64,000 bases of DNA, from NCBI RefSeq assembly GCF_003850345.1, contig NZ_CP027707.1:4154001-4218000 (forward strand), written 5' to 3'. Under the pieces are notes generated by a model. It searched no databases. It saw only the letters and a program-made list of their open reading frames with translations, and was not told the DNA's origin. A program made the translations under genes and the position numbers. Origin of the DNA: Pseudomonas chlororaphis subsp. piscium. GTDB lineage: Bacteria; Pseudomonadota; Gammaproteobacteria; Pseudomonadales; Pseudomonadaceae. Below are positions 22,469 through 57,530 of the stretch, piece after piece. Every line of letters begins with the position of its first letter. Within the stretch, counting starts at the first letter, position 1.

Positions 22469-25400
22469 TCATTCTCCCTGATCTTTTTGCGCTGAAACGA
22501 CACGAATGGCATTGTCCCCAGTGGGCTGCTGTTGCAGATTGCGCAGCACCTCCGTAAGTCTGCGTACAAACGGATAGCGCATGATGCCAATGTGGTCTCC
22601 TGGTAGACGGATCACCGCTATATCGCCCGCAACAGCCTTACGCCATCCATTAATGAGTTCGTCTCTGTCAATACCGTCTTTGTCGTCGTTGGCAACAATG
22701 AGACTCATTGGGCCTGGGTAAAGCGTCGTAAGATGGTAATCGGCAAGTGAATGGGCGATGAATGCGCGCACGCGGTTTGCGAACTCGGAAAGTTCCAACT
22801 CTTCCGGCACGGCGCCAGCAGCAACCAGACGAGTGTGCAGAAGTTCAACTTGCCGCACGTCGTCAAGCCGGTGGAATTCGCTTTCTTCGAACGCCAGATC
22901 AGCCCCGGTAAGTTGTGCAAAACTGTTGCCGATCTCTGCGGCCCAGCGGCTGTTTGGCCAACTCCGCTTCATTGTTGTTTGCTGCTCCGTTTGGCCCGGC
23001 GGAATGCTATCGACCACTGCGAGCAGCGTGACCTGCTCATCTTGGCTAGCTAGTCGTCGCGCGATCTCGAAGGCAATCAGGCCACCGAAAGAGTGACCGC
23101 CCAGTCGGTATGGGCCATGAGGCTGGACACGGCGGATATCGACGATCAGTTCGCTGGCAATCGCTTCAACGCGTGTCGTATCGTCAGTTACTTCATCAGC
23201 TCCCGTCAGATGCATCCCCCAGACCCTAAACGTGCCGGCCAACTCGCCGGCAAGGGCGTGCAGATACGGCACATGCCCGCCGGCACCAGGTGCGAAGAAC
23301 AGCGGTGGCGCGTCGGATGGCGTAGACAGTGCAAACAGGGCCCCCACTTGAGTAATAACGTCCTCATCGCTGGCGTTGACGAGCCGGGCCTGTTCGCCAA
23401 TCGTCATCGCCATCAGAAGGCGCGCAGCCATGCCCTGATCAAGCCCAAATACCTGACCCGCACGCGAACAGACCCTCAACATCAGCAGCGAATCGCCTCC
23501 TAGTTCGAAGAAGTGGTCGTTACGGCCGACACGCGCCAGCCCCAGTAGATCCTGCCAGATCTGTGCCAGGGTGGTTTCCATCTCGCCCGCCGGCGCCTGA
23601 TAACCGCGAGTTGCCACCGCTGTCAGATCCGGTGCCGGCAGCGCCTGGCGGTCAAGTTTGCCATTGGGGGTGAGCGGGAAAGCCTCCAGCGTCACGAAGG
23701 CGCTGGGCAACATGTACTCGGCCAGTTGCCGAGCAAGCTGCTGACGCAGTTCGGCGGGAGCAATCTCAACACCGGTTTGCGGCAGTACATAAGCCACCAG
23801 ACGCTTGTCGCCCGGTACGTCCTCGCGGGGAATAACCACGGCGTCGCGTACGCCCTCGCAGCGCGCCAGTGCTGCTTCAATTTCCCCCAGCTCGATACGG
23901 AAGCCGCGCAGCTTGACCTGGAAGTCGTTGCGACCGAGGTACTCGATGGTGCCGTCAGGTAGCCAGCGGCCGAGGTCACCAGTCTTGTACATGCGGGCGT
24001 GCGGGTCAGCGCAGAACGGGTCGTCAATAAAGCGTTCGGCGGTCAGCTCCGGACGGTTGAGATAACCGCGCGCAACCCCAGCGCCGGCAATATGAAGCTC
24101 ACCGGCCACGCCGAGTGGTGTAGGTTGTCCGTGCTGGTCGAGTAGGTATGCGCGCAGGTCAGGCAGCGGTTTACCGATCAGACTGCCGTGTCCTGCGGCG
24201 ATGTCGGCGTCTGTCAGTTCTCGATAGGTAGCATGGATGGTTATCTCGGTTATGCCATACATATTGACCAGACGTGTCTGCTGGGTTGCATTGCGCGCAA
24301 CCCAAGGAGCCAATATAGGAAATTCCAACGCTTCCCCACCGAAGATAATGCAGCGTAGCGCATGCGGTGTCGCATCTTGTGCAGGAATCAACTGGCGGAA
24401 AGCACTAGGCGTTTGATTTAGCACTGTCACCTGTTCTCGACACAGCAGCGCATAGAAATCCAGCGGTGAACGGGCACATGCCGTTGACACGATAACGAGT
24501 CTCCCCCCATAGGATAGGGCTGCCCACAGCTCCCACACTGAGAAATCGAATGCGAAAGAATGGAATAGGGTCAACACATCGTTATCATCAAACTGGAAAT
24601 CTACTTGCGTGGCGGCTAACAGACGAGTCACATTCCGATGCTCAACCATAACGCCCTTGGGCTGCCCGGTGGAGCCCGAGGTGTAGATCACATACGCCAG
24701 GTGGCGCGCAGTCAGCCCCATCGCCCCAGCATCGGGGTTGCTGTCCGCCAGCTCCTCGATAGCCGGGTTTTGAACATCAAGCAGCACCGTAGGCAATGTG
24801 GGGCCCGACTCATCGATCAACGAGCGCTGGGTTAACAGCGCCACCGGCGCCGCATCGGCCAGCATGTATGCCCGTCGTTCGGCCGGGTAGTCCGGATCCA
24901 GCGGCACATAGGCCCCGCCAGCCTTGAGGATAGCGAGCAGGCCCACGACCATTTCCGGGCTGCGCTCGACGCACAGGGCCACCCGGTCGTCGGGACGTAC
25001 CCCCAGGGCGATCAGGTGATGGGCCAGGCGGTTGGCGCGACGATTGAGCTCACCATAGCTCAGGGTCTGCTGCTCGAATACCAGCGCGGTCGCGGTGGGA
25101 TTGCGTTGCGCCTGGGCCTCGAACAGTTGATGGATCAACGCGTCCTGCGGGAAATCGCTCTGGGTAGCGTTGAAGCCGTACAGCAGTTGCTGACGTTCTT
25201 CTGGCGGTACGACTGGCAGGCTCAGGGCGGCCCGTTCTGGCTCGTTAGCCAAGGCATCAACCAGTCCCGTGATCGCGGTGGCCAGGTAGGCAGCCATCCG
25301 TGCCGGATCGACGCCCTCCACCGTTTGAGCCGTCAGGCTGAAGCCCTCCCCCAGATCGTCCACCGAGACGGTAAACGGGTAGTTGGTGCGCTCCTCCGAG

Positions 25401-36403: not shown

Positions 36404-36410
36404 AGGTTGA

Positions 36411-36674
36411 TATCTCCATCTGGGTATCGGTAGCGGATGTGTGTGGAGCGATAAGGTGGCGCTCCACCTGCGTAAAAACTATGTCGATCACCCTATCGAG
36501 CGACGATCCATCGACAAACAGATCCATCGGTACAGAAGCACCGGTAGTGCGCTCGACGGTATTTCGCAATTCCGCAGCAGTAAGCGAGTCAGTTCGTTCG
36601 GCACCATCAGGCCTGAGCTGCGACCATCGTGGTTGACGACCGAACAGGCCAGGGCCAGGCCTTGAAGGGCAACG
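36411..36674 (-). pseudogene. relic of a PKS gene: KS fragment joined out of frame to an ACP end
   Basis: Immediately after the acyltransferase stop the minus strand reads VVNHDGRSSGLMVPNE, the ketosynthase motif found as AVNHDGRSAGLTVPNE in the intact PKS at 44288-47818. At about 36592 the frame shifts and the sequence becomes DSLTAAELRNTVERTTG, then VPMDLFVDGS, matching the ACP end of the same PKS. Roughly 2.5-3 kb between the two parts is missing. The ACP frame stays open to 36345, overlapping the start of the giant NRPS. It is the residue of a PKS gene that once preceded the NRPS. Confidence 0.82.
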
Positions 36675-38778: not shown

Positions 38779-39062
38779 TGCGTGTGACCTCGGCAGCACG
38801 ATGCAATCGCAGCGATTACACGAATCGTGTTTCGAGTCTGTTGTCCATCTGCCGCCACACTAGGCGTTGTGACCAGCAACAGCGCGTGATAGGTAGATTG
38901 CATCATCGTCATCATTGCTTACCCTTGAACAATAAAGGTTGTGATACACCGCACAACAGGTCGAGAGGTCTACGACCTGTCCAACCTCGTCCCTCTGTGA
39001 CTCATGAAGCAATTGAGGTCGATGCCGCAGCGTTGCTTCAATGACTGCGTCACCACACAACC

Positions 39063-39980: not shown

Positions 39981-40038
39981 GACGACGCTCCTTATGCCGC
40001 TACTTTAAACAGGGGTACTGAGCCGTTAACACACTGCG

Positions 40039-40944: not shown

Positions 40945-41025
40945 GGGGCAATACGTCCTGTGTTGTTAGGAGACTCACAGCTGAAATCGTAAACTCCAGC
41001 GGATAAGGGCCAGAAAATGCGTCCC

Positions 41026-42896: not shown

Positions 42897-44068
42897 CGAG
42901 GCTCACCACGAAACACGGCCAGCGCATGCCGCGCGACCAACGCCTTGTGTACTTCATCAGGCCCGTCATAAATGCGTCCTGCGCGCTCATGGCGCCAGAG
43001 GACGTTTACGATCGTGTCACCGCTGACACCTAGTGCACCTTGGATCTGCAGGGCGTGATCAAGGACGTTCTGGGTCACTCCGGCGACAAAAAATTTCGCT
43101 ATTGATATGTCAACTTGGGCTCGCTCATGGCGCTTCTGCAAGCGCGACGCGGCCTGAGCGACAAGGAGCCGGGCCGCGTCGATCGAAGCACGGCTTTCAG
43201 CAATCCAGTTCTGCACCGTCTGGCGCGACGACAAAAACTCCCCCGGTGCGAGTTCGCGGCGGCTGGCCCGTCGACACATAATTGCGAACGCGCGCTCGCA
43301 AACACCGATCCAGCGCGCGCAATGATGTAGCCGCCCCGTGGCAAGGCGGGCCTGCAGGACGACGAATCCAGCCCCAAGCTCGCCCAACAACGCGTCCGTC
43401 TCCACTCGACAGTCGTCCAGCTCGATTTCACCATGGCTGGCCCAGCCACACCCCTCATCGCCCATCACGCGAATATTGCGAACATGCCGATACCCGGGTG
43501 CATCAGTCGGTACGATAAAGGTGCTAGTTCGCGCGTGCAGCGGCGCAGTCTCATCGGTAACGGCGAGCACGATCGCAAATGCCGCACGGTCTGCACCCGA
43601 GGCGAACCACTTGCGGCCAGTGAGGTGCCATGCACCCTCCTTGAAAACAGCCTTGGTCGCCAGAGCAGAAGGGTTCGAGCCGGCCCTGTCCGGCTCAGTC
43701 GCCGCAAAGCAACTGCGGACCTTGCCCTGCAGTAAAGGATCAAGCCAGCGTCTTTTCTGCTCAGACGTGGCGTACTCGAGAAGGATGTCGATATTACCGG
43801 CATCAGGTGCCTGATAGTTAACCGCATAGTGACCCAGTGGCGACCTGCCAAGCACTTCCCCGACTTCGACCAGTTCGAGCAGGTCGAGCCCCGAGCCGCC
43901 ATTGACTCGAGAGAGCTGGGGAAGCCAAAGCCCCCTCGCCCGGTTTGCCCCACGGATGTCACTCATCAACTGCTCGACCGTAGCAAAATCACCACTCGCC
44001 AGTGCCGCCTCCGGCGCAGCCAGCGCCGCCTCAACCGCTAGAAATGCCGCGACTCGGTCATTCATCAT
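42893..44068 (-). CDS. acyl-CoA dehydrogenase, FadE2-like (DepF-like)
   Basis: About 391 aa from the ATG at 44068 (an upstream start at 44086 is possible). Flavoprotein with CFAATEPDRAGSNPSAL at about 125-141, the FAD/substrate segment GRKWFASGADRAAFA (about 157-171) and the C-terminal QIQGALGVSGDT motif (about 343). The family oxidises acyl thioesters at alpha and beta carbons. In FK228-type pathways the homologue is assigned to the starter or to alkene formation without firm proof. It overlaps the docking-domain ORF upstream and the kinase downstream, so it is made from the PKS message. Confidence 0.88.
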   Translation of the reverse strand: MMNDRVAAFLAVEAALAAPEAALASGDFATVEQLMSDIRGANRARGLWLPQLSRVNGGSGLDLLELVEVGEVLGRSPLGHYAVNYQAPDAGNIDILLEYATSEQKRRWLDPLLQGKVRSCFAATEPDRAGSNPSALATKAVFKEGAWHLTGRKWFASGADRAAFAIVLAVTDETAPLHARTSTFIVPTDAPGYRHVRNIRVMGDEGCGWASHGEIELDDCRVETDALLGELGAGFVVLQARLATGRLHHCARWIGVCERAFAIMCRRASRRELAPGEFLSSRQTVQNWIAESRASIDAARLLVAQAASRLQKRHERAQVDISIAKFFVAGVTQNVLDHALQIQGALGVSGDTIVNVLWRHERAGRIYDGPDEVHKALVARHALAVFRGEPR

Positions 44069-44291
44069 CCACCCCCGGCATGTCAAGCTGAGCCATGAGC
44101 GCGCTCATCTGGTCCCTTCCACCCGCCACCAGCTCCCGAAACCCCTGCATGTGCAACAGTGCTTGTTTCGATTGCCGCAGGCGCTCAAGCAAATCATGGC
44201 CCAGACTACCTGCAGGCCCCTCCACCTCAAGCCCGTCACCACAACGACACCGGGTAACGTCCGAATCCGCCAAGTGTTGTGCGATAGTCAT
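44058..44291 (-). CDS. orphan TubC-type docking-domain protein (N-terminal NRPS remnant)
   Basis: A 77-aa protein that starts on the stop of the second PKS (ATGA overlap 44288-44291). Residues 1-50 resemble the docking domain at the head of the giant NRPS: both have CRCGDGLEV / CRNGDMLQV, then a Gly-rich turn and LLERLRQSKQALL / LVERLRQAKETLL. In the NRPS this leads straight into a condensation domain; here the protein ends after about 27 further residues. It occupies the exact place where a PKS-to-NRPS handover would be encoded. It is either a relic of a deleted NRPS gene or a small docking partner kept on its own. Confidence 0.72.
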   Translation of the reverse strand: MTIAQHLADSDVTRCRCGDGLEVEGPAGSLGHDLLERLRQSKQALLHMQGFRELVAGGRDQMSALMAQLDMPGVDDE

Positions 44292-47200
44292 AGGGTAATT
44301 TTCTCTGTGCTAGTACCTGGGCTCACCGACTGGGTAGTCACGAGCCGGCGCTCAAGTTGGCCCACAATCACTTCAACCACGGTGTTCAACGGCGACCCAT
44401 CGATGAAGTGCTGCATAGGTACATAAACGCCAGTCGATCGTTCTATGGCGTTACGCAGTTCCGAGCCGGTAAGGGAGTCCATCCCCAGTTCAATCAGCGA
44501 CATGTCGTGCGACAACTCGACATCACTGGACAAGATAAACTGCAGCTCCCCCCCTAGGTACTCGGCGATCAATGCTCGGCGAGCATCAGCGCTGTGCCCA
44601 CGAAGTTGCTCGAAATCAAATACGGGTCTTCGCATCGGAGGGTGACCGCCAACCATCCCCTCAAGCAGTCGCGGAAGGTTCGGCTGTGAAGCTATCCGCT
44701 GGGTATCAATCGCCGCGATGATGAGGTGTGCATCGACATTGAATGCTTTTTCCAGCGCTCCAAAAGCCTCGGTTTCGGTCAATGCCTGCAGGCCGCTCGC
44801 ACGCATTCGCTCCAGTACTTTGGGGTCAGTAGTCCCCATGCCTGCCGCCCACAGTCCCCAGCCGACTGACAAGGCGGGACGTCCATGCAGGCAACGTTGT
44901 TGCGAAAGTGCGTCGAGGTAGGCATTTGCCGCCGCGTAGGCCGCCTGGCCATGGCGCCCAAGTGCGACCGAGATCGACGAGAAAAGAAGAAACAGATCGA
45001 CGGGCTGGTTAACTGTCAGCCGGTCAAGCAGGTCGGCCCCTCCCACCTTGGCGCGCAACACCCCGGCGAATGTTGCCGACGTCATGGTGACCAGGGAGGA
45101 GTCGTCAATCACACCGGCACAATGGATAACGCCACGAACGGGGCGGTCTGCCAGTGCCAACGCACTACGCAGTGATACCTCGTCCGCTACATCGGCACAG
45201 GCCACACGCACATCAACACCGTCGCTGCGCAGTTGATCGCAGCTCGCGCGCACGTCTTGTTCCTGTTCGCCCCGACGGCTGATTAACAAAAGATGGCGCG
45301 CCCCACGGCTCGCCAGCCAACACGCGGAAGCCAGGCCGAGGGCGCCTGTACCACCGGTGATGACATACACACCATCAGCCGCAATGTCAGGCATCACCTC
45401 ACAGGTCCCGGTACGGCGCAGTCGAGGTACGAGGATGACAGCCGCGCGAATAGCGACCTCCTCTTCGCCGTCTTCAACTGTACCCAGCATGGCCGCAAGC
45501 GTTGCAAGTGACTGTTGCGATCCATCGATGTCAACCGACCTGCCCCAAAGCGCCCCCTGCTCACGGCGTGCAACACGCACCGCTGCGTTGATGGCCGAGA
45601 CGACAGGGTCAACTTCCTCCGCCGGCCCGGTAAAGGTCGCCCCTCGTGTGACCACCACCACGGGGCCCAAGGATGGGTTCAGCGCGAGTGCTTGAGCCAA
45701 CTCGATGATAAGGGCACCGTATTGTGTGATTGCCTCCAGCGGTTCGGTGGTTGCCAGGCTGCCCGCGACTACAAGCATCACACCCAGGTTGGCATTTCCT
45801 GCCCCCAGGATTGTCTCGACCTCCGCACCCACTACGGTGCATTGCTCGCCCGCTGCTTCCAGTGCTGCGGCGATTTCACCGCACAGCTGCGGATCATTTC
45901 CAGCAATGATCCGTCTGCCTGAACGCAGCGCAGATGCAACCAACGGTATCGGCTTCCAGGCTATCCGATAGAGCGGCGGTGCTTGCGTTGCTCCGGACTG
46001 CTCGTCCAGCCAATATTTTTGCCGGTCGAATGCATAGGTCGGCAATGACACTATGCGGCATCGCTCAGGCGCAAGTCTGGTCAAATCAACTGGCGCGCCA
46101 AGAACGTAACCTTGAGCAATGGCCTCCAGCGTTTCGGGCAATGCTTCCCCAGCGACATCCCTTGCAGGTGACATTGCACGGGTCAGACCGGACACCACTG
46201 TCGTCTGTTCTCCCAGGGCAAATCGGCGCAGCTCATTGGCCATCTCCTGCGCACTCGATGCAACGACTGCCAGGCGGTGGGAAAAATGTGTCCGCGCCAC
46301 GCGGGACGAGAAGCAGACATCTTCGAGTTCGGTTTCGCTGATCCCAGAGAGGTGCTCGGCAAAACGAACCGCATTCATGAGAAGCGATGCCGCTGATTTA
46401 GCCGAAACTGTCAATAACTGTGGAAAGCGAACCTCCCCCCGTACAGCTTGGGAGACCGGTGCCGCCACGACGAGCGCATGGGCATTGGTCCCACTGAAAC
46501 CAAAGGAGCTGACACCTGCCACGCGCAGGGCTCCACTCATCTGCTCATTCTGCCGGGCAAGCCGAAGCGGCACTGAGCGCCAGTCAACACCACGATTGGG
46601 CTGCAGGACGTGAAGCGTCGCAGGCACTACGCCGTGACGTACGCAAAGAATAGCTTTGATCAATCCAGCAATCCCCGCGGCCCCCTCCAGATGCCCCAAA
46701 TTGCTTTTTATCGAACCAAGTAGCACAGGCGAACCTTTCGCACGGTTGGCAAAAACCGATGCCAGGGCCGCAGCTTCGATCGGATCGCCCAGTGATGTAC
46801 CCGTCCCATGGGCTTCAACATATTGCACCTGTTGAGCGTCGATGTTGGCGGCCCGCAATGCCGCTCGTATCAGTTCACGCTGGGCGTGTTCATTCGGTAC
46901 CGTCAACCCGGCGCTCCGACCGTCATGGTTGACGGCAGACCCCGCGATCAAGGCGTCGATCGAGCGACCGGCCGCTGTCGCATCACTCAGCCGTTGCAGC
47001 ACAACGACACCACATCCTTCGCCACGGACGAAGCCATCTGCGGAGTCGTCGAAGGGGCGGCACCGGCCACTGGCCGATAACATATGAGCACGACACTCTG
47101 CCGCTGTGGAAACTGGCGAAAGGACGACATTCACACCACCGACAATAGCGATGTCGCATTCGCCGGCGCGTAATGCAGCGCAAGCGAGATGAACAGCAAC

Positions 47201-47818
47201 CAGTGAAGATGAACAGGCTGTGTCAAGGGTGATCGACGGCCCGTGCAGCCCAAGCACATGGGATATACGTCCGGCCAGCACGCTGGCTGCGTTACCCGAA
47301 GCGCTGTACAAGTCCACATCAGCGGCGTTGCGAATTCGGTGGGCATAATCTTGATGCATAACACCGACAAATACGCCGGTGGCGCTGCCCTTCAGTGCCG
47401 AGGCAGGAATACCGGATCGCTCCACCGCTTCCCATACAACTTCCAGCAGGATTCGCTGTTGCGGATCAAGCATCGTCGCCTCTCGCGCCGAAATACCGAA
47501 AAACCCAGGATCAAAGGACGCGATATCGTCTAGAAAACTGCCCGTGCGGCAATAGATATGGCCTGCCGAATCCGGATCGGCGTCGAAGTAGCGCTCGCTA
47601 TCCCACCGGTCAGCCGGGACCGCTCGAACGCCGTCCGTACCGGCAAGTAGCAGTTGCCACAATTCCTCTGGCGAGTCTGCACCGGAAAATCGACACCCCA
47701 TGCCGAGCACCGCAACGGGTTCGTTCAACTGTTGCTCCAGTCCACCCAGTTTTCGCTGGAGCCGTTCAATCTCTATCAGCGCATCGTGCATCAGCCTAGT
47801 GGGATTGTTCGTACTCAT
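44288..47818 (-). CDS. trans-AT PKS module KS-KR-ACP (DepC-like)
   Basis: About 1,176 aa from the ATG at 47818 (a GTG at 47821 is in frame). A short coiled-coil-like N terminus is followed by KS (about 33-460) with Cys in TACSSS (about 200), His in EAHGTG (about 336) and NLGHLEGAAG. A linker then replaces the AT domain. KR spans about 810-990 with YVITGGTGALGLA and a Tyr in AAYAAANAYLD; the ACP has Ser in GMDSLTGSEL at about 1116. There is no DH, so the beta-hydroxyl is kept, as needed for the 3-hydroxyl of 3-hydroxy-7-mercapto-4-heptenoate. It overlaps the first PKS stop and the docking-domain start. Confidence 0.92.
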   Translation of the reverse strand: MSTNNPTRLMHDALIEIERLQRKLGGLEQQLNEPVAVLGMGCRFSGADSPEELWQLLLAGTDGVRAVPADRWDSERYFDADPDSAGHIYCRTGSFLDDIASFDPGFFGISAREATMLDPQQRILLEVVWEAVERSGIPASALKGSATGVFVGVMHQDYAHRIRNAADVDLYSASGNAASVLAGRISHVLGLHGPSITLDTACSSSLVAVHLACAALRAGECDIAIVGGVNVVLSPVSTAAECRAHMLSASGRCRPFDDSADGFVRGEGCGVVVLQRLSDATAAGRSIDALIAGSAVNHDGRSAGLTVPNEHAQRELIRAALRAANIDAQQVQYVEAHGTGTSLGDPIEAAALASVFANRAKGSPVLLGSIKSNLGHLEGAAGIAGLIKAILCVRHGVVPATLHVLQPNRGVDWRSVPLRLARQNEQMSGALRVAGVSSFGFSGTNAHALVVAAPVSQAVRGEVRFPQLLTVSAKSAASLLMNAVRFAEHLSGISETELEDVCFSSRVARTHFSHRLAVVASSAQEMANELRRFALGEQTTVVSGLTRAMSPARDVAGEALPETLEAIAQGYVLGAPVDLTRLAPERCRIVSLPTYAFDRQKYWLDEQSGATQAPPLYRIAWKPIPLVASALRSGRRIIAGNDPQLCGEIAAALEAAGEQCTVVGAEVETILGAGNANLGVMLVVAGSLATTEPLEAITQYGALIIELAQALALNPSLGPVVVVTRGATFTGPAEEVDPVVSAINAAVRVARREQGALWGRSVDIDGSQQSLATLAAMLGTVEDGEEEVAIRAAVILVPRLRRTGTCEVMPDIAADGVYVITGGTGALGLASACWLASRGARHLLLISRRGEQEQDVRASCDQLRSDGVDVRVACADVADEVSLRSALALADRPVRGVIHCAGVIDDSSLVTMTSATFAGVLRAKVGGADLLDRLTVNQPVDLFLLFSSISVALGRHGQAAYAAANAYLDALSQQRCLHGRPALSVGWGLWAAGMGTTDPKVLERMRASGLQALTETEAFGALEKAFNVDAHLIIAAIDTQRIASQPNLPRLLEGMVGGHPPMRRPVFDFEQLRGHSADARRALIAEYLGGELQFILSSDVELSHDMSLIELGMDSLTGSELRNAIERSTGVYVPMQHFIDGSPLNTVVEVIVGQLERRLVTTQSVSPGTSTEKITL

Positions 47819-50800
47819 CACATGCTCCCTCCGCGCAGCTCTTCGAGCTTCGCCGAAAGCATTTCGACCACATCTTCCTGTGAGAGATGTTCAGGTATTG
47901 AAGTCTCAGGCAAAGCGGACGCAGACACGGGCAGATGAGCCTGATCGGCTGCACTACGCAGTGCGTCAATGGCCGCCTCGCCAAAGACCGTCTGCGCCAT
48001 ATGGTCAGCCAGCGCAGCTACCGTGGGATTAGAGAAAATAACAGTCGCTGCAACCGGACGTCCGAATCGCCTTTCGAGCTTTAAACGCAGGTCCGTAATG
48101 AGCAACGAGTCGAGATCGTACTCAAACAACGAACGTTCGGGATCGAGCGTCGCCAGGTCTGTCCCCGTGACGGCCGACACATCCTCGGCGATGAGCTGGA
48201 ACAGCCGATGCCGTCGTTCATCGGCAGACAGTGGGAGCAGCTCATTGACCGAGGACGTTCTCGCAGAGCCGGGAATGTCGCTGACAATGTCGTCAAAGCG
48301 GCTGAATGGAACCTGGGGAGGCCACTGTCCGACCAGACGTTGCCAATCTACCGCAAGCAGGACGGCATGCGCTGGCAGATCGGCGAATAGGATGTTCTCG
48401 AACGTCGCACGACCGCACTCCTCCTCTATCTGGCCGATCCCCAACTGGCTCAATCGGCGTTTCGCGGTGACAGCAGTACGAGCAGCCATACCAATGTCTT
48501 GCCATGGGCCCCATGCGATCGACAGCGCCGGCATCCCCTGTGACCGACGATAGACCGCAAGCTCATCCAGGTAGGCGTTAGCCATCGCGTAAGTCGCCTG
48601 CCCTGGTGCACCAAACGCCGCAGCGGCAGATGAGAATAGAATGAAGTGTTTGAGTGGATAGCGCAGTGTCCGCTCGTGCAGCAACCATGCCCCCTGAGCT
48701 TTACCGGCAAAGGTCGCTTTCAGCGATGCGGGTGTGACATCGCCCATGAGCCGGTCCTCGACCACGCCTGCCAAATGACAAATTCCGCGCAAAGCCGGCA
48801 TCGTCGTATCTATCTTGTGCAACAGCGCCTCAATGTCTGCGTCGTTTGCCAAGTCAGCCTGAATCACTTGAACGTCGATACCTTCATGCTCAAATGCAGC
48901 CAGTGTTTCCTGAGCATCAGCATCAGGTGGGTGACGGCCAGTGAGCACCAGCGACCGAACCCCGAGCGCGCTGAGCCAGCTCGCAACACGCAACCCCAGT
49001 TCACCAAGGCCACCGGTAATGAGCCACGTTTCATCCCCCGAAAAACTGGCTTCAGTGCGCCGTGGAAGATCAAACCTATGAAAACGCGGCGCCGAAACGC
49101 CCTCCCCATCGACCATGACTTCTGTTTCTCGATCAAAAAAGTCGAGACCACGACGAATGGTTCGCGCATCGTTGGCGCGTACCGCCAATGTCCGAAGATA
49201 AGGGGTTTCCATAGCCGCCACCCGAGCAAGCGCCTGGAGCGGCGCCCCACTGGGTACATTCACTGGCAGGACGATTGCTACACAGCACGGGCGGTCATTT
49301 CTCGCGACTCTGCCGAGCAGGTCCAAAGCGCCCTCATACAGACTCAGATCGGGTCCCGTCGCTCGTGCATCTGCCCCACGACAATCGATAATAAAGTCGG
49401 TTGTCTCGAACGAGATATCGGAGGGGCTGTCGGCCACAAGGGGACGCTTACCCTCAGCCAGCAGGATATCCGCCAGCTCCTCGGCAACCCTACCCGCATC
49501 CCGAAGAACGACGACGGTCTGTGGTAATTCGAACGGGCGGTCGAGCGACTGGCTCCGCCATTCGATGGAGTAGCCATCGCGCAGCGGCTCGATACGCAGC
49601 AGTTCGTTCCGACTGACCTCGCGTGATTCCAGGCCCACCATCTCGGCCAAAACGCCGTGGTCGTCAAACAGCGTAGCGAGGCCACGATCGGCTGCAGCAT
49701 AACAACGGAGCTGCGATGCGGTATGGGCACGTATGGTCAACCGAGCAATACGGGTGGGAACAAACGCCTTATTCCCCTCCGGCCGGGCGGCAACCGCCAG
49801 CAGTTGCAGGGCCGAATCGAGGATCCCCGGATGGAGCAGCCACCCGTCGTCGCCAGCATCGGTCCGCATCGAACAGACGGCATCGTTATGACCTATAACA
49901 ATGTCCGATAGCCGACTGAACGAAGGGCCCATCACCACGCTGTGGTCGCGTAACCACGAGTCCAGCAAGACGGTTGGGGTTTCTTCTCCCTGTACCGTCT
50001 GCGATGGCACGACACTGACAGTTGTGGTCGTTTCGACCCTGGCCGTGGCATGGATTTCAAATGGTTCTTGAGTCAATACTGTCGCGTCAAAACCGTCATC
50101 ATCACGTACAAGTTGCAGTTGCACCCGACGCCCCATCCCCTGCGGAATCACCAGGGCAGCAGGAAAACGTAGATCGTGTAGAGCGAATTCGTGCGCTTTA
50201 CTCACCTCGCGCACCCCTTCAGCGATCATCACCGCCAGCGCCGCACCGGAGACGATGACCTTGCCGTAAATCATGTGATCACAGAGAAATGGCAGGGTCG
50301 CCACGCTCCATTGGGCATCAAAAAAGCTGGAACGCAGCATCGGCGCCTCTGTGCGCCGCCCAAGAAAAGTTGAAGTGCCGCTATCGGCGTAGCGTGGCGC
50401 AGGGTCGATCCAGAAACGCTTGCGCTGGAACGGATAGGTTGGAAGCGACACACGATTTGCGCCGCTGTAGATTTTCGTCAAGTCCAGATCTATACCGCCA
50501 GTCCAGAGTCCTGCAATCGCATTGAGCGACTCCTGGGCAAATGAGGCGACACCGGCTACGTCAGCACCTAGCGCGTTGTCGCCAAACTCGAGCACCAACG
50601 TCGCACCCGCTGCCGCCACAGCCGAGGCACCGTCCCCCCGACTATGCGCCAGTTGTGCAAGCTCCTTATGCACGGCCTCCACGCTATCAATTGCCATGCC
50701 CGAGAATGCACTGATCCAAAGCAGTGACGGTGCCACAACATTTTGCGCATTACAGTTGCGCGCATCATCAGCGCTCAAGGCTCCAGCCGCGAAAGCCGCG

Positions 50801-52503
50801 GCAAATAGGCCGGCTCCGGTACCGCAAACAATCGAGGGCACAACACCGCGCGTCTGCCAGACTAAAACGCCGTCGATAACCGCACCCAGATTATCTGTGT
50901 CACCAAAGGCGAACGTGACCTCAGGCCGACGCTCCTGCTCTTCGTTAAAAAATGCATTCTCATCTTGTTTACCGTCGGCAAACGCCTTCAGCGAGCTGAT
51001 CAGTTGACCACGCTGCTCAGAGCGAAAAGCTACACGTCGCTCCCTAGTTAGCCTGCCGATGGCTGCCGTAAAACACACATCTTCGATAGAGAGATCTGGG
51101 TCCGCCTCCAGGAACGCCGCATAGTTTGCGCACAACTCGCGTAGAGCGTCCTCACGTGCCGAAACCAGCAGCAGCGGTACAGTGCTCCGTACCTGCGCCA
51201 GACGACGAGGTGATGCTTCCAGGATCACGTGGGCATTGGTACCGCCAATACCGAACGAACTGACTCCCGCCCGCCGACCCGGGGTACTCCAGGGAGTCAG
51301 ATCAGTTGGCAGGTAATAGGGGGATCCTCCACGTAACTCGTCGATCGCATGCGCGGCCCCCACGGTCGGAGGAATCTGGGCATGCTGAACGGCGAGTGCG
51401 ACTTTGATCAAACCACACACGCCTGCTGCTGCATTCATATGTCCAACATTCGCCTTGACCGAGCCAATAGCACAACGCGGACCACCAAGCTGTCGGTCCC
51501 CTAATGCACTCGTCAACGCCGAAAGCTCCACCGCATCCCCAATGGCAGTCCCTGTACCATGAGTCTCAACATACTCAATCGAGGCACCGTCAACTTCACC
51601 GAGCGCAAGAGCTGTCCGGATTACATCGCCCTGCCCCCGGCCTCCAGGCGCGGTAAAACCTACTTTGGCAGCCCCGTCATTATTGATGGCTGCACCGCGA
51701 ATCACAGCCAGAATAGAATCCCCGTCGTCAAGCGCATCTTCCAGCCGCCGCAAGATCACTGCACCGGCACCGTTACCAAACACGGTGCCGCTACTTTGTG
51801 TAGTAAAGGGGCGACATGCGCCATCTGCGGCAAGAATACTGCCGTCCTCATGCACATACCCCTGCCGTTGTGGTAACCCAATGCTGGCACCTCCCGCCAC
51901 GGCAATGTCGCACTGGTAACTCAACAATCCCTGGACGGCGAGTACGACAGCAACCAGTGAAGTGGAACAGGCGGTCTGTACCGTGATTGCCGGGCCGCCA
52001 AAATCCATGCGGTAAGCCACTTGTGCAGCCAGGTAATCCTTGTCAACGCCTACCCATTGTTGCAGGTAGCGGTTCGGTGCTGAGCGATCCAGTTGGCCCA
52101 AGACATGGTCGGTCAAATAATCAAGGCTCGCAGAACCTGCCCAGATTCCGATGCGTGGGCCTCGAGCCGCACCGTGCCCAGCATGCTCTAGTGCGTCATG
52201 GACGCATTCAAGAAAAACCCGTTGTTGAGGGTCCATAAATGCTGCTTGAGAAGGGGCAATCCCAAACAACGCGGCATCGAACATATCAATATTTTCAATC
52301 GTGCCTCCCGCCCCGATAAAACCGGGTTGGGACAATACCGCCTCGGGCACACCTTCGCGTCGTGCTGCGTCTGCGGTGAAGCGCTCAATCGTCACCTGAC
52401 CGCCGGCTATAACTGACCAGAACTGTTCCAACGTGGTTGCCCCAGGAACCCGGCAGCCAGCGCCAATGATTGCTACGGCGTCAACAGGTATATCCTTGTC
52501 CAT
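47818..52503 (-). CDS. trans-AT PKS module KS-(AT relic)-DH-KR-ACP (DepB-like)
   Basis: A 1,561-aa protein. KS about 8-430: Cys in TACSTS (about 178), His in ETHGTG and NVGHMNAAAG. Residues about 530-600 look like a decayed AT: VCGTGAGLFAAAFAAGAL aligns with the GHSxGE region of ATs but lacks the Ser. DH about 725-1000 has HMIYGKVIVSG (His near 741) and Asp in HPGILDSALQL. KR about 1155-1340 has WLITGGLGELGL and Tyr in QATYAMANAYLD. The ACP has Ser in DLDSLLITDL (about 1466). KR plus DH gives an E-alkene, as expected at C4-C5 of the mercapto-heptenoyl unit. It overlaps its upstream neighbour by one base. Confidence 0.92.
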   Translation of the reverse strand: MDKDIPVDAVAIIGAGCRVPGATTLEQFWSVIAGGQVTIERFTADAARREGVPEAVLSQPGFIGAGGTIENIDMFDAALFGIAPSQAAFMDPQQRVFLECVHDALEHAGHGAARGPRIGIWAGSASLDYLTDHVLGQLDRSAPNRYLQQWVGVDKDYLAAQVAYRMDFGGPAITVQTACSTSLVAVVLAVQGLLSYQCDIAVAGGASIGLPQRQGYVHEDGSILAADGACRPFTTQSSGTVFGNGAGAVILRRLEDALDDGDSILAVIRGAAINNDGAAKVGFTAPGGRGQGDVIRTALALGEVDGASIEYVETHGTGTAIGDAVELSALTSALGDRQLGGPRCAIGSVKANVGHMNAAAGVCGLIKVALAVQHAQIPPTVGAAHAIDELRGGSPYYLPTDLTPWSTPGRRAGVSSFGIGGTNAHVILEASPRRLAQVRSTVPLLLVSAREDALRELCANYAAFLEADPDLSIEDVCFTAAIGRLTRERRVAFRSEQRGQLISSLKAFADGKQDENAFFNEEQERRPEVTFAFGDTDNLGAVIDGVLVWQTRGVVPSIVCGTGAGLFAAAFAAGALSADDARNCNAQNVVAPSLLWISAFSGMAIDSVEAVHKELAQLAHSRGDGASAVAAAGATLVLEFGDNALGADVAGVASFAQESLNAIAGLWTGGIDLDLTKIYSGANRVSLPTYPFQRKRFWIDPAPRYADSGTSTFLGRRTEAPMLRSSFFDAQWSVATLPFLCDHMIYGKVIVSGAALAVMIAEGVREVSKAHEFALHDLRFPAALVIPQGMGRRVQLQLVRDDDGFDATVLTQEPFEIHATARVETTTTVSVVPSQTVQGEETPTVLLDSWLRDHSVVMGPSFSRLSDIVIGHNDAVCSMRTDAGDDGWLLHPGILDSALQLLAVAARPEGNKAFVPTRIARLTIRAHTASQLRCYAAADRGLATLFDDHGVLAEMVGLESREVSRNELLRIEPLRDGYSIEWRSQSLDRPFELPQTVVVLRDAGRVAEELADILLAEGKRPLVADSPSDISFETTDFIIDCRGADARATGPDLSLYEGALDLLGRVARNDRPCCVAIVLPVNVPSGAPLQALARVAAMETPYLRTLAVRANDARTIRRGLDFFDRETEVMVDGEGVSAPRFHRFDLPRRTEASFSGDETWLITGGLGELGLRVASWLSALGVRSLVLTGRHPPDADAQETLAAFEHEGIDVQVIQADLANDADIEALLHKIDTTMPALRGICHLAGVVEDRLMGDVTPASLKATFAGKAQGAWLLHERTLRYPLKHFILFSSAAAAFGAPGQATYAMANAYLDELAVYRRSQGMPALSIAWGPWQDIGMAARTAVTAKRRLSQLGIGQIEEECGRATFENILFADLPAHAVLLAVDWQRLVGQWPPQVPFSRFDDIVSDIPGSARTSSVNELLPLSADERRHRLFQLIAEDVSAVTGTDLATLDPERSLFEYDLDSLLITDLRLKLERRFGRPVAATVIFSNPTVAALADHMAQTVFGEAAIDALRSAADQAHLPVSASALPETSIPEHLSQEDVVEMLSAKLEELRGGSM

Positions 52504-55500
52504 TACAACTCTCCCCTGCGCGCCCGCACGCGTTGCTTGTAAGCGCGTATGTAAGCAATATCGTTCTGATTGGAGTTGGCACCGGTACTCGTCGCTAAGG
52601 AGGAAGTGGCAACTGATCGAATAGTCGCAAGCGAGAAGAAATCAGCCAGCGACGGAACCGCTATCCCACGAGACTCCAGCAGTGCGCGCAAACGCACAAT
52701 GTGCAGTGAAGTCGCCCCCGCATCGAAGAATCGCTGTTGAGGGTCAATGCCAATACCCACCACTTCGACATAGGCCTGCATCATCATCGTTTCGAGCAAA
52801 ACATCGCCACGCACCGGCCGTACCGGCTTCGGCTCAGGTGGCGCGGGCAGCCGTGAGCGGTCCACCTTACCGTTCGCGGTCAAGGGCAGAACGTCGAGTA
52901 CCCCCACATGGTGCGGTTGCATATAGGTTGGTAGATGGAGAGCAAGAGCAGCACGCACTGAGGTCACTACCTCGCCGGGCACTTCCTGCGACGCAAGCAC
53001 ATGGAGCTGGATTACCGTCGCCCCGCTGCGTCGAACGACCGAGGCCACAGCCCGTGAAATACCACCTGCCTTCATCGCGACAGCTTCAATCTCACCCAGT
53101 TCGATGCGATAACCCTGAACCTTGACTTGATTGTCCATACGCCCAAGCAGTTCAAGTTCGCCAGTCGACATCCATCGTGCGAGATCACCAGTCCGATAGA
53201 GGCGATTGCCATCCTTATCGGTGAAAAAGCGCCGGTTGGTTTCTGCATCGTTACCGCAATAAGCCAGGGCCAAGCCTCTTCCACCCAGTAGCAATTCCCC
53301 GGCCACGCCGTCAGGGCGCTCACGTCCGTCAGGGGCACGCACAAAACATTGTTGATTTGAGAGCGGTGTCCCGTATGGAATTGAGAGCAGTACCGCGTCG
53401 CTAGGAACGATGGGGTGAATGACTGACCAGATTGAGACCTCTGTTGCGCCACCAAGGCTGATGGGCTGGGCTCCCGTAAACACCTGACGGATACGTGCCG
53501 TAAGAGCTGGTGCAATCCAATCGCCACTGAGCAAGACGAGTCGCAAACTGGACGAATGAGGCGCAGCGACATCAAGCAAGAGCTCAAGGACTGCAGGTAC
53601 CGAGTTCCAAATCGTTACTCCAGCAGTCGTCAATGCTTGCGCAATTGCGTCCGGATCGCGGGATCGCTCGGGAAACACTACGGCACCACCTACCGCGAGC
53701 AATCCGAAAATATCGTAGACGGAAAGGTCAAACGCCAGTGATGAGACGCACAGTGCTCGATCCCTCGGGCCGACCGAGAAGCGCTCGTTGATATCATCTA
53801 TGGTGTTCGCCGCAGCCTCATGGGTGATAACCACACCTTTGGGACGCCCCGTCGAGCCCGAGGTGAAAATCACATACGCGACATCGCTCGAGTCCCCATC
53901 CACCGGTTCAGGCCGGAGCCGACCCGGTTGCTGATCAAGCTGCAGCGTCGGTATCGACAGGTTCATGCTGTGTGTCAGCACCGCATACCCGGCCTTGGAT
54001 TCGTACAGGAGCTCTTCAATTCTCGTCAGCGGCCAGGACGGCTCAATGGGGAGATAGACCGCTCCAGCGATGCCGATCCCAATCAATGCTGCCACAGCCC
54101 TTGGACCAGGTTCGACAATGGCTGCAATCACATCCCCGCGCCTGACGCCTTTGCGTTGCAACCTGGCCGCAATGTCCTCGGCATCTTGCCGCAAGTCACC
54201 GTAGGTGGTGAGTAGATCACCGAAGACTACCGCGATCGCGTCCGGGCTTTCAGTTGCGTGGGTTATAAACGGCGTAGCCAATCGACGCGGGGACCTGTCG
54301 CAGCTCGTCGAATTCGCCTTCAGGTGCCGTGCTTGCTGACTGACTGGAATCTTGGCGAGTACCGGATATTCGACCGCAGAGGGCCTGGTGGCGATCGTCG
54401 TGAGCACCTCCACAAACGATGCAAACATCGTCTCGATCAACCCGGCAGGGAATAACTGCTCCACATACTCCCACATCATCAGCAAACGTCCATCGCGTCG
54501 CGCCAGGATGTTGTGCAGCGATACTTGCGGGGTCGGATTGGAGACGTCGACCATAGGCCCGATCGAGTCAAGAACCGAAAGGTCGTCAGCCTGATCGCCC
54601 GACAGAAGACTGGTCACGACTATAGGCATCAGAACCGGCGCACCATTGCGGCGACTGAGTTCACGGAGCATCGAAACACCTGTGGACCAGGGCTCGTCCA
54701 GGTCACGCCATATCTGTTGCTGGATCGCCTGGGCAAAGTCGGCGAAGGAGTCATGGGGTTCGCGCAAAGACAACAGGGTACTGCTCGTGAAGTCGCCAAT
54801 GGCCTGCTCGGCCTGTCCTGATCGTGTACTGCAAGTCACATTGATGGTGAGAGCTGGCGATGCAGACCATAAACGCAAGACGTCAACAAAGGCAGCCATA
54901 CAGATTGACGAGAGCGTGACCCCAAGCGCCTGTGCATTCAATGCCAAGGCTGTTGTCAGCTCTTCCGACAGCTCCTGTCGGCACATTACAAAGCGAGGGG
55001 CATCAATATCCGTGGCAGCCATCGCCTGCGGTAAATCAGGCGCAGGCGCGATTGACTCCACCTTCTTCAGCCAGGCTTCGCGACATTCAAACGGCACGCA
55101 GGAGGTAGCCGTCCCCACCCTCCTGAAACCCGATACCAAGGAAGGACCGTCAACCAACTCCCGAACAAGGAGCAACAAGCTCCGCAGGTCGCCAGCAAGC
55201 AACCCCAGACGCAAATGCAACACCGTCTTGGCATCCGTAAGGCGCGTGAAACAGACGCTCAGAGGATGACGATTGTCCTGGGCGAGCTCCTCGCGCGCCG
55301 CGCTCAATCCGGCGCTTATGGCTTGCTGTCCGAGACCCCGCAAGTCTCGATGAGCAATGACGGGGGCGTACCCGCGCGGATCGATGACCGCACAGCCATC
55401 CTCTTGCACGGACATCCGCAAAGCCGGATGGGCTGTCACCAGCGCAGCCAACCTCAGGCTCAGAGAGGAGACCTGGGAGTGATCAACTTCAAAATCAACA

Positions 55501-57530
55501 CGAATGTGTGGTTGAACACTGCCGAGGGGAACACCACTCTGTTGGCCGATCCAATAGGCTTGCTGCATTTCGGACAACTCAAACGGCTGCGCGCAATCTA
55601 TAGCGTGCGAAGCCAAAGGCTCTGCGACTGCAGCACTTTGCGCATTGGCAATGTCCCTGCACAGACTATCGGCCGATGCCGTATACAACGTCTCGAACTT
55701 GAGCCTTACACCGTAACGCGAGTAAATCGCCGCGGCTAGCCGAGCAGCTGAAAGCGAGTCGAGCCCAGCATCAATAAGCCTGCTGGTGCGCTCGCCCACA
55801 GCGCCCGGCACGAAGCGAGCAATCTCTAGAAGGATATCGTCGTCAGCTTCGACGGATTGACGATGGGAGTCAGCAACGACCTGCAACTCACCGCGAAACA
55901 GGGCATCACGTGTTGCAGCACGACGGGTTTTACCACTTGATGTGCGCAGGATACTCCCCCGCCGAAGCAGAACGATACGTAGCGCGCCTATGTCATGCCT
56001 GACCTTCAGCTCCGTGCGAATACGCGAGAGGATGTCTCGTGTATCACCCTCTTTACAGCTGCTACGCACCTCTGCACCGATGAGAACCGCTTCACCGTCC
56101 TCCCCTTCTATGGCTACTGCAAATACGCGGCCTTTACGAATATCGGGGTGGCACTCCGAGACCGAATCCTCAAGGTCGTGGCAGTAGATATTACGGCCGC
56201 CGACAATGATCAGATCCTTCAGTCGCCCCACGACAAAGAGCTCGTCTTGCTGAAGAAAACCAAGATCGCCCGTACGAAGCCATGGCCCTCCTCCGGTAGC
56301 CAGGCAAGCTTGGAATATTTCCCGTGTTTCGCTCTCACGGGACCAATAGCCATCTGCAACACTTTGCCCAGCAACCCAAATTTCGCCAACCACATCAGGT
56401 TTGCAAGGAACAAGCGTGGCGGGATCGACAATCACAATGCTTGTTCCTACCGAGCTGGTACCGCATGACGCCAGCTCAATGCCCTGGTGACAGGGAACAA
56501 CCCGTCCAGCGGCCAGCGCGGCGGGCTCGAAACAGCGACTGCGTGTGCCTTCGCCGCAACGTCCCGATGCCACTTTCAAGGTCGCCTCCGCCAACCCATA
56601 CCCAGGTATGACCACGGAAGCAGGCATTCCAAAGGGAGCAAAAGCTGTTACGAATCGGCGCACGCTGTCGCACCGAACCGGCTCTGCGCCATTGAGCGCA
56701 AATCGCATTGAAGAAAGGTCGGTTCCAGGTGCCAGATCAGCCGCCCGATCTGCACACAAGGCGTAGGCAAAATTGGGCGCTGCCGTATGAGTACCACGCA
56801 CCGATGCCATCGCTCGCAACCATGACAACGGCTGCGCAATGAAACTCTCCGGAGGCATCAAGTAAGCGGTGAAACCGCAATACAAGGGCGTAAGAATACC
56901 GTACACCAAGCCCATATCATGAAAGTACGGCAGCCAGCTCACCATCACACTCTGGGCATCGTGCAGAGCTGCGCGATCGAGATCTTCGATCGTCGTCCGT
57001 AGGCTCGCCTGAGTTACAGCAACGCCTCGCGGTGTTCGTGTGGAGCCCGAGGTGTACTGGAGCAGCGCTGGATTATTGTCGGCCGCCAGGCGCATAAAAG
57101 GAGAGCGCCGATCATTGTTGTCCGTTTGCAGCCAGTCAATCCCCGGAGGTCCCTCACGTCCTTGAGCAGTTAACGCAAGTGTCCCGCCACAATCTTGAAC
57201 AATGGCCGCTACAGTTTCGCCATTGGTTCGAGGAGCAACGGGTACGGCAATCGTGCCGGAGAAACAACAACCAAAAAATGCCGGAATAAACTCAAGGGGA
57301 TTGTCATAAGCCAGCAATACCCGGTCACCGGGTGAGGTTCTTTGCGCCAGACGATAAGCAATAGCCGCTGCACGCTCGCAAAGGTCCGCATTTGTCAGCG
57401 ATATGCCCTTCGATTGATCCAGCGAAGCAAAAGCCAGCAGATCTGGGAAGGTATCAGCACGCGACATTAATTGCTCTGCCAGGGAAAGACGAGGCAGAAC
57501 ACGAGGTTGTTCGCTGCAAGGAATGCTCAT
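52503..57530 (-). CDS. loading protein AL-ACP-Cy/C-A(Cys)-PCP (DepA-like)
   Basis: A 1,675-aa protein with five domains. A fatty-acyl-AMP-ligase-type domain (about 15-545) has QYTSGSTRTPRG and GRLKDLIIVGGRN. The ACP has Ser in DAGLDSLSAA (about 587). The condensation domain (about 650-1080) has cyclisation-type motifs LSEMQQAYWIG, GDFTSSTLL and IVVTSLLS, but its central motif reads GLLAGD where DxxxxD is usual. The adenylation domain (about 1083-1560) has pocket code DLYNLSLIWK, a textbook Cys code. The PCP has Ser in DAGATSLHIV (about 1610). It should bring in the Cys that becomes the mercaptopropionyl starter. GAGGGG lies about 8 bases before ATG. It is the first gene of the operon. Confidence 0.92.
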   Translation of the reverse strand: MSIPCSEQPRVLPRLSLAEQLMSRADTFPDLLAFASLDQSKGISLTNADLCERAAAIAYRLAQRTSPGDRVLLAYDNPLEFIPAFFGCCFSGTIAVPVAPRTNGETVAAIVQDCGGTLALTAQGREGPPGIDWLQTDNNDRRSPFMRLAADNNPALLQYTSGSTRTPRGVAVTQASLRTTIEDLDRAALHDAQSVMVSWLPYFHDMGLVYGILTPLYCGFTAYLMPPESFIAQPLSWLRAMASVRGTHTAAPNFAYALCADRAADLAPGTDLSSMRFALNGAEPVRCDSVRRFVTAFAPFGMPASVVIPGYGLAEATLKVASGRCGEGTRSRCFEPAALAAGRVVPCHQGIELASCGTSSVGTSIVIVDPATLVPCKPDVVGEIWVAGQSVADGYWSRESETREIFQACLATGGGPWLRTGDLGFLQQDELFVVGRLKDLIIVGGRNIYCHDLEDSVSECHPDIRKGRVFAVAIEGEDGEAVLIGAEVRSSCKEGDTRDILSRIRTELKVRHDIGALRIVLLRRGSILRTSSGKTRRAATRDALFRGELQVVADSHRQSVEADDDILLEIARFVPGAVGERTSRLIDAGLDSLSAARLAAAIYSRYGVRLKFETLYTASADSLCRDIANAQSAAVAEPLASHAIDCAQPFELSEMQQAYWIGQQSGVPLGSVQPHIRVDFEVDHSQVSSLSLRLAALVTAHPALRMSVQEDGCAVIDPRGYAPVIAHRDLRGLGQQAISAGLSAAREELAQDNRHPLSVCFTRLTDAKTVLHLRLGLLAGDLRSLLLLVRELVDGPSLVSGFRRVGTATSCVPFECREAWLKKVESIAPAPDLPQAMAATDIDAPRFVMCRQELSEELTTALALNAQALGVTLSSICMAAFVDVLRLWSASPALTINVTCSTRSGQAEQAIGDFTSSTLLSLREPHDSFADFAQAIQQQIWRDLDEPWSTGVSMLRELSRRNGAPVLMPIVVTSLLSGDQADDLSVLDSIGPMVDVSNPTPQVSLHNILARRDGRLLMMWEYVEQLFPAGLIETMFASFVEVLTTIATRPSAVEYPVLAKIPVSQQARHLKANSTSCDRSPRRLATPFITHATESPDAIAVVFGDLLTTYGDLRQDAEDIAARLQRKGVRRGDVIAAIVEPGPRAVAALIGIGIAGAVYLPIEPSWPLTRIEELLYESKAGYAVLTHSMNLSIPTLQLDQQPGRLRPEPVDGDSSDVAYVIFTSGSTGRPKGVVITHEAAANTIDDINERFSVGPRDRALCVSSLAFDLSVYDIFGLLAVGGAVVFPERSRDPDAIAQALTTAGVTIWNSVPAVLELLLDVAAPHSSSLRLVLLSGDWIAPALTARIRQVFTGAQPISLGGATEVSIWSVIHPIVPSDAVLLSIPYGTPLSNQQCFVRAPDGRERPDGVAGELLLGGRGLALAYCGNDAETNRRFFTDKDGNRLYRTGDLARWMSTGELELLGRMDNQVKVQGYRIELGEIEAVAMKAGGISRAVASVVRRSGATVIQLHVLASQEVPGEVVTSVRAALALHLPTYMQPHHVGVLDVLPLTANGKVDRSRLPAPPEPKPVRPVRGDVLLETMMMQAYVEVVGIGIDPQQRFFDAGATSLHIVRLRALLESRGIAVPSLADFFSLATIRSVATSSLATSTGANSNQNDIAYIRAYKQRVRARRGEL

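What the first reader, a model, noticed from the sequence alone, without database searches (positions are those of the whole stretch)
22469..57530. Complete FK228-family depsipeptide cluster, predicted to make FR901375 or a close analogue
Gene content follows the FK228 cluster order (DepA-, B-, C-, F-, G-, H-, I-, J-like). The PKS pair (KS-DH-KR-ACP then KS-KR-ACP) builds 3-hydroxy-7-mercapto-4-heptenoate from a Cys-derived starter. The NRPS reads Val-Val-Cys-Thr with D, D, D, L stereochemistry, and a CxxC oxidase would form the disulfide. Composition and order agree with what I remember of FR901375, a P. chlororaphis HDAC inhibitor. The domain and motif reading is direct; the compound name is inference.
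Basis: partly seen in the sequence, partly recalled or inferred. Interest (0 to 1): 0.95.

Follow-up and report, generated by a model that had tools for sequence, protein, structure and literature searches.

The report
Known FR-901375 cluster with imported-gene scar
This stretch of a Pseudomonas chromosome carries the enzyme set that makes FR-901375, a relative of the cancer drug romidepsin; it is already published, but it also holds a scar suggesting where its last enzyme came from.

Summary
Window 22469-57530 (minus strand) encodes a full FK228-family assembly line: pcdA-B-C, accessory genes F, G, H, I, J, an in-cluster acyltransferase, and a 4644-aa four-module NRPS read as Val-Val-Cys-Thr. 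The compound guess is right too, but not new. Passmore et al. (Nat Commun 2026, PMC13324335) published this cluster from P. chlororaphis subsp. piscium DSM 21509, matched FR-901375 to a synthetic standard and lost it in a pcdK deletion. The window agrees with the published details I tested: docking residues (10 of 10), the 234-bp spiDE/spiC2 fusion pseudogene, module identities and m/z 559.2255.

What I add concerns origin. Between the acyltransferase gene and pcdK lies a fossil of a second pcdC-type gene (about 36652-36414), not mentioned in the main-text parts I read. It ends in a degraded form of the C-to-NRPS junction seen in related clusters. Its ACP tail groups with P0022, a JGI protein. 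P0192, reported on a contig of the same length, is a four-module PcdK relative that groups with PcdK in the first condensation and thioesterase domains. This suggests, without settling it, that pcdK arrived with its own C gene instead of evolving locally from bhcDE.

The parts
52503..57530 (-). pcdA: acyl-AMP ligase (FAAL)-ACP-condensation/cyclisation-A(Cys)-PCP starter subunit
   Evidence: Pfam, PDB sequence matches to FadD23-type ligases and BmdB, Cys-type code
47818..52503 (-). pcdB: KS-DH-KR-ACP. DH motif reads HMIYGKVIVS (P of HxxxGxxxxP replaced by S), so DH activity is uncertain
44288..47821 (-). pcdC: KS-KR-ACP with C-terminal docking tail; 88% to SpiC1
   Evidence: the four ACP residues named in the paper fit one offset only
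44058..44291 (-). 234-bp fusion pseudogene: start of a spiDE orthologue joined to the end of a spiC2 orthologue
   Evidence: length equals the 140+94 bases of the paper; residues 1-46 match a DE docking domain and 48-71 the stretch just before gene F in a bhc-type cluster, where C2 would end
42893..44086 (-). F: acyl-CoA dehydrogenase-like
   Evidence: 83-85% to counterparts in related clusters, one split piece 75%
41928..42896 (-). G: APH-family phosphotransferase
41026..41949 (-). spiE2 remnant: 307 aa, carrier domain plus thioesterase, left by in-frame deletions according to the paper
   Evidence: PMC13324335
40039..40944 (-). pcdH: DepH-like FAD disulfide oxidoreductase, CPYC motif
39063..39980 (-). 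I: alpha/beta hydrolase (esterase)
38014..38799 (-). J: type II thioesterase
36675..37835 (-). Free-standing malonyl-ACP acyltransferase (trans-AT), 86% over 99% of its length to an AT of Pseudomonas sp. Q71576, the spiruchostatin producer (its place in that genome not seen)
36414..36652 (-). Fossil of a second pcdC-type gene: KS scrap (about 36652-36590) then, in another frame, ACP tail (36590-36414) running up to the pcdK start
   Evidence: found genome-wide at E 3.4e-10 with PcdC; tblastn of 16 proteins against 9 intergenic stretches: ACP part E 6.7e-22 (P0022), 4e-15 (PcdC); KS part 8e-7 (PcdC); trees; junction
22469..36403 (-). pcdK: bHD-C-A(Val)-PCP-[E/C-A(Val)-PCP]-[E/C-A(Cys)-PCP]-[E/C-A(Thr)-PCP]-TE
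   Evidence: identical to database protein P0122
58396..59301 (-). LysR-type regulator upstream of pcdA; possible cluster regulator, not tested
   Evidence: Pfam only

Best explanation
This is the FR-901375 (pcd) gene cluster. Shown by others for DSM 21509: the strain makes FR-901375, and deleting pcdK or its docking-domain region abolishes it. Inferred here from anatomy: PcdA supplies a Cys-derived C3 thiol starter; PcdB and PcdC extend it twice with malonyl units loaded in trans by the cluster's own acyltransferase, giving the (E)-3-hydroxy-7-mercapto-4-heptenoyl pharmacophore. PcdC's ACP docks on PcdK's N-terminal bHD domain, PcdK adds D-Val, D-Val, D-Cys and L-Thr (epimerised by dual E/C domains), the TE closes the lactone, and PcdH forms the disulfide. 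Origin (inferred, less certain; see the section on the most novel reading): a spiruchostatin-type cluster lost its own cap genes (two remnants are left), and a complete cap NRPS, pcdK, sits behind the acyltransferase gene together with the decayed tail of a C gene that once preceded it. The confidence below is for the identity of the cluster, not for its origin.
For: Domain content. Published proof for the product. Agreement with the paper: 10 of 10 bHD residues, 4 ACP residues at a single offset, 234-bp pseudogene; tridomain 1 vs 2 1074/1083, 2 vs 3 740/1063, A-PCP 1 vs 4 446/595 on my boundaries (99.2, 69.6, 75.0%; paper 99, 68, 76%); calculated [M+H]+ 559.2255, as in the paper. Origin: fossil C gene grouping with P0022/P0015 at 98/98 and 99/98; degraded C-to-NRPS junction; PcdK with P0192 in the first condensation domain 97/99 and, in the TE, the two set apart from five dep-type TEs by a 100/100 branch; AU rejection of PcdK with bhc for the first condensation domain, p 0.0002 and 0.038 without P0192.
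Against: For the cluster identity, nothing found. For the origin: raw identities favour bhc over P0192 (first condensation 69% vs 60%, E/C 74% vs 69%). The Cys A domain is 80% to bhc, and a PcdK+bhc clade is not rejected there (p 0.149). The E/C tree is unresolved: PcdK+bhc is rejected only weakly (p 0.024), PcdK+P0192 is merely not rejected (p 0.35). Grouping the 59-residue fossil with the local PcdC/SpiC1 is not rejected (p 0.117). P0192 has a long branch and odd composition. P0022 and P0192 share only a reported contig length (122,370 bp); linkage and adjacency are not shown. Composition does not help: third-position GC of pcdK (0.73) differs from pcdA-C (0.58-0.60) but lies inside the range of the six non-cluster genes measured in the window (0.71-0.87).
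Confidence: 0.96

Rival explanations
1. The published origin: bhcDE moved from a burkholdac cluster to the edge of a spi cluster and was remodelled in place by A-domain swaps, three tridomain duplications and a TE taken from DepE.
For: bhc-type DE is among the closest fetched relatives by raw identity over bHD-C1 (69%; G421 and FERM 68-69%) and closest over Cys-A (80%). TE identity to Chromobacterium dep is 64-67% against 53% to P0192. Passmore et al. argue it from 69% over 1574 aa. A move of the bhcC tail with bhcDE would also leave a C-gene fossil.
Against: AU tests reject PcdK+bhc in the first condensation domain (p 0.0002; 0.038 without P0192), PcdK+Chromobacterium dep in the TE (p 6e-6) and fossil+BhcC/MSMB1498 in the ACP tail (p 0.0024). 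The E/C likeness to bhc (73.7%) is no greater than to a Xenorhabdus NRPS outside the family, P0136 (73.0%). A four-module TE-ending relative, P0192, exists elsewhere.
Confidence: 0.33
2. The fossil before pcdK is a scrap of the local spi-type C gene (a duplicate of pcdC), not an imported one.
For: AU test does not reject fossil with PcdC/Fl5BN2/SpiC1 (p 0.117).
Against: ACP part is 38/58 identical to P0022 but 27/59 to PcdC; P0022/P0015 grouping at 98/98 and 99/98.
Confidence: 0.13
3. The window's cluster makes a close analogue, not FR-901375 itself.
For: Substrate codes alone cannot fix the product; a near-identical NRPS (P0141) has a Cys-type second A domain.
Against: The window agrees with DSM 21509 at the fingerprints tested and its own second A domain is the Val type.
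Confidence: 0.04

Closest known systems
FR-901375 (pcd) cluster, P. chlororaphis subsp. piscium DSM 21509 (PMC13324335)
   Same: Genes named in the main text, both published remnants, pcdK architecture, docking residues, module identities, predicted mass
   Different: No difference found; the C-gene fossil before pcdK is not in the sections read or the term hits (supplement not readable)
Spiruchostatin (spi) cluster, Pseudomonas sp. Q71576
   Same: SpiC1 88% to PcdC; an 86% acyltransferase from the same strain
   Different: spiDE, spiC2 and spiE2 survive here only as remnants; the cap NRPS is PcdK
Burkholdac/thailandepsin (bhc) cluster
   Different: Here a four-module Val-Val-Cys-Thr NRPS ending in a TE
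FK228/romidepsin (dep) cluster
   Same: A-B-C pharmacophore genes and F-G-H-I-J order
   Different: NRPS genes lie between C and F; no match over 100 bits to the acyltransferase or the spiE2 remnant in the stretches fetched
P0192 and P0022, unnamed JGI record or records
   Same: 4628-aa bHD four-module TE-ending NRPS and a C-type PKS, each reported on a 122,370-bp contig
   Different: No Cys-type A domain: DAWLMG(V/A)TF and DAWWMGGTF alternate, so its product cannot be FR-901375

Membership tests
FK228-family depsipeptide clusters | A-B-C pharmacophore assembly genes | tested here: met
FK228-family depsipeptide clusters | Cap NRPS with N-terminal bHD docking domain | tested here: met
   TubC_N at residues 3-52; 10 of 10 residues
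FK228-family depsipeptide clusters | DepH-type CxxC oxidoreductase | tested here: met
   (59-60% in three dep-type clusters)
FR-901375 (pcd) cluster | Four modules Val-Val-Cys-Thr with TE | tested here: met
   code meanings recalled, same prediction in PMC13324335
FR-901375 (pcd) cluster | E/C domains in modules 2-4 (D, D, D, L cap) | tested here: inconclusive
   Only four condensation-type stretches, so no separate E domain, and HHLVGDHL in the three later ones; dual function itself not shown by sequence
FR-901375 (pcd) cluster | spiE2 remnant and 234-bp spiDE/spiC2 fusion pseudogene | tested here: met
FR-901375 (pcd) cluster | Produces FR-901375 | not testable with these tools
   Shown for DSM 21509 in PMC13324335; strain identity of the window inferred
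Romidepsin (dep) cluster | Cap NRPS genes between C and F | tested here: not met
   Only a 234-bp pseudogene lies there
Spiruchostatin (spi) cluster | Working spiDE, spiC2 and spiE2 cap genes | tested here: not met
   Remnants only

The most novel reading that the evidence does not exclude
FR-901375 arose by whole-cap replacement: a ready-made four-module cap NRPS from a P0022/P0192-type cluster was inserted, with the tail of its own C gene still attached, behind the acyltransferase gene of a spiruchostatin cluster and took over the resident pharmacophore machinery. This replaces the published in-place remodelling of bhcDE, and points to an undescribed depsipeptide branch whose cap has no cysteine. 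(Odds lowered from 0.5 on recheck, because the composition of pcdK turned out not to argue for foreign origin.)
Probability: 0.45. Interest if true: 0.5.

Novelty: already known. Interest (0 to 1): 0.35.

Why it matters
The cluster and its product are in print, so the finding itself is a confirmed rediscovery. The fossil and the P0192 relative matter because the published account proposes how nature swaps peptide caps onto one drug pharmacophore. A swap that carries the upstream C-gene tail along would be a simpler route than stepwise remodelling, and could be checked from one public contig.

Tried and rejected
Considered and dropped. (1) Cap genes of the DepD/DepE kind hidden between C and F: only the 234-bp pseudogene is there. 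(2) P0192 as a direct orthologue that makes FR-901375: it has no Cys-type A domain. (3) Further donor-gene fossils in 9 intergenic stretches, searched with 16 proteins only: 36404-36674 alone gave a convincing match; one weak APH match (E 0.008, near 22.1-22.3 kb) was not believed. (4) Finding a host of P0022: of 369 genomes of the class, 1 matched at E<=1e-250, the window's own. (5) The genome-contig scan with PcdH was a poor choice of query: 80 loci at 51-64% identity, of which I tested 7; 3 of those 7 genomes hold an FK228-type C gene.

Distribution: a full-length C orthologue was seen in 1 of 398 Pseudomonas genomes (own; next best by E-value 36% over residues 32-1027), in 1 of 293 relatives (own) and, with BhcC as query, in 5 of 65 genomes of the genus of G399, itself included. 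The first two sets share genomes. P0001 stands for 9 sequences on 6 contigs, one of 7,216,947 bp, so further genomes carry it; I could not read them.

Papers: 7 searches. PMC13324335: abstract, sections 4, 6, 7, 8, 10, 34 and term passages seen; supplement not readable. All other papers: search listing only. That the fossil is unreported rests on those sections and term hits alone.

Tree rows: the first TE tree held E2rem, dropped in the second for its extreme branch. TE rows are missing for bhc and TSV86 because no hit was returned. No SpiDE, Fl5BN2 NRPS or second P0192-type sequence was available. In the Cys-A tree the dep_Chaem row was not a Cys-type domain. P0023 was in the first tail tree and left out of the second. 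The script's fourth code letter for A3 (M) comes from a shifted gap; by eye it is E. AU groups were named after trees had been seen.

Full report
What is there. The window lies at 4154001-4218000 of a single 7,065,155-bp contig. On its minus strand, 57530-22469, is a complete FK228-family cluster: pcdA, pcdB, pcdC, an acyl-CoA dehydrogenase (F), an APH-type kinase (G), a PCP-TE remnant, pcdH, an esterase (I), a type II thioesterase (J), an acyltransferase, and the 4644-aa NRPS pcdK. The acyltransferase could load the PKS modules, in which Pfam finds no AT domain; an 86% relative is recorded from the spiruchostatin producer Q71576.

Product. Specificity columns read Val, Val, Cys, Thr in pcdK and Cys in pcdA (meanings recalled, and the paper predicts the same for pcdK). 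The composition gives [M+H]+ 559.2255, the value reported for FR-901375. Passmore et al. (PMC13324335) identified this cluster in P. chlororaphis subsp. piscium DSM 21509, matched the compound to a synthetic standard and abolished it by deleting pcdK or its bHD region. The window agrees with that report at 10 of 10 bHD residues, at the four ACP residues (one offset only) and at the 234-bp pseudogene length. Module identities also agree: 99.2%, 69.6% and 75.0% on my boundaries against 99%, 68% and 76%.

Remnants. As published, spiDE and spiC2 survive as a 77-codon fusion: residues 1-46 match a DE docking domain, and 48-71 weakly match (E 7e-4) the stretch just before gene F in a bhc-type cluster, where C2 would end. 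spiE2 survives as a 307-aa PCP-TE piece.

New: a second C fossil. A search of the window's own genome with PcdC hit 36420-36593, just before pcdK (E 3.4e-10). Translation shows a KS scrap and, in another frame, an ACP tail. In tblastn of 16 proteins against 9 intergenic stretches, the 271-bp gap gives E 6.7e-22 for P0022 (58 aa, 66%), 2e-16 for BhcC, 4e-15 for PcdC and 4e-14 for SpiC1. The end of the fossil, GGAGATATCAACCTATGAATATC, resembles the C-to-NRPS junctions of four fetched clusters (bhc-type G439, FERM, G421, Chromobacterium dep), where the C stop overlaps the NRPS start as ATGA; here the old C frame no longer meets that stop. The fossil begins within about 25 bases of the acyltransferase stop. 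So pcdK most likely once followed, and was coupled to, a C gene of its own.

Whose C gene? In the tail tree the fossil joins P0022 and P0015 (98/98; 99/98). Grouping it with BhcC and its neighbour is rejected (p 0.0024); grouping it with the local PcdC/SpiC1 is not (p 0.117). P0022 is reported on a 122,370-bp JGI contig, and so is P0192, a 4628-aa relative of PcdK over its full length (60%). The shared length makes it likely, not certain, that they are on one contig. P0192's modules are near-identical in alternation (A1 to A3 98.7%, A2 to A4 99.2%; E/C 99.8-100%) and none is Cys-type.

Trees of the NRPS. First condensation domain: PcdK with P0192 97/99; PcdK with bhc rejected, p 0.0002, and p 0.038 when P0192 is left out. 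TE: PcdK and P0192 are set apart from five dep-type thioesterases by a 100/100 branch, and PcdK with Chromobacterium dep is rejected, p 6e-6. Results the other way: bhc is closer than P0192 by raw identity in bHD-C1, E/C and Cys-A; E/C is unresolved, with PcdK+bhc p 0.024 and PcdK+P0192 p 0.35; the Cys-A domain is compatible with bhc (p 0.149). The E/C likeness to bhc (73.7%) is matched by a Xenorhabdus NRPS, P0136 (73.0%), so it says little. Third-position GC of pcdK (0.73) differs from pcdA-C (0.58-0.60) but sits within the six non-cluster genes measured (0.71-0.87), so it does not mark pcdK as foreign. I read PcdK as a member of the P0192 lineage whose repeats have been homogenised and which may have taken its Cys A domain from a bhc-like source.

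Recent recombination. Modules 1 and 2 agree at 3226 of 3249 bases. A second PcdK, P0141, on a 7,064,975-bp contig, is identical up to residue 1575 and over its last 1256 residues, but its second A domain equals the Cys domain A3 (516 of 516 residues). Either gene conversion changed the cap in another isolate or near-identical repeats were misassembled; I cannot tell which.

Verdict. Observation confirmed, product call right, cluster already known. What is left as new is the C-gene fossil and the P0192 branch, which challenge the published origin without settling it.

Noticed in passing
P0141 (4632 aa, contig 7,064,975 bp): A near-identical PcdK whose second A domain is an exact copy of the Cys domain (516/516), predicting Val-Cys-Cys-Thr; gene conversion or misassembly.
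   Followed up: partly
P0192 and P0022 (JGI, contig length 122,370 bp each): A four-module bHD NRPS without any Cys-type A domain, probably beside an FK228-type C protein: a likely undescribed branch of the family.
   Followed up: partly
P0012 (Rhizobium skierniewicense), P0004 (Burkholderia sp. TSV86), P0011 (FERM BP-3421 plasmid), P0023: FK228-type C proteins (53-70% to PcdC) in further hosts, including an alphaproteobacterium; products not looked into.
   Followed up: no
52503-47818 (pcdB): DH motif lacks the usual proline (HMIYGKVIVS), while the downstream DSALQ motif is present.
   Followed up: no
8806-14815: CusS-like sensor kinase, response regulator and a heavy-metal P-type ATPase beside the cluster.
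   Followed up: no
62-7152: AfsA-type hotdog protein, HAD phosphatase, HlyD and RND pump genes at the window edge.
   Followed up: no
60129-64000: TPR protein, HlyD-type adaptor and ABC transporter upstream of the LysR gene, possibly a type I export system.
   Followed up: no
L102/L103 and L101/L104: FK228-type C genes in B. multivorans WS-FJ9 and C. haemolyticum each appear as two separate matches in these assemblies; not mended.
   Followed up: no
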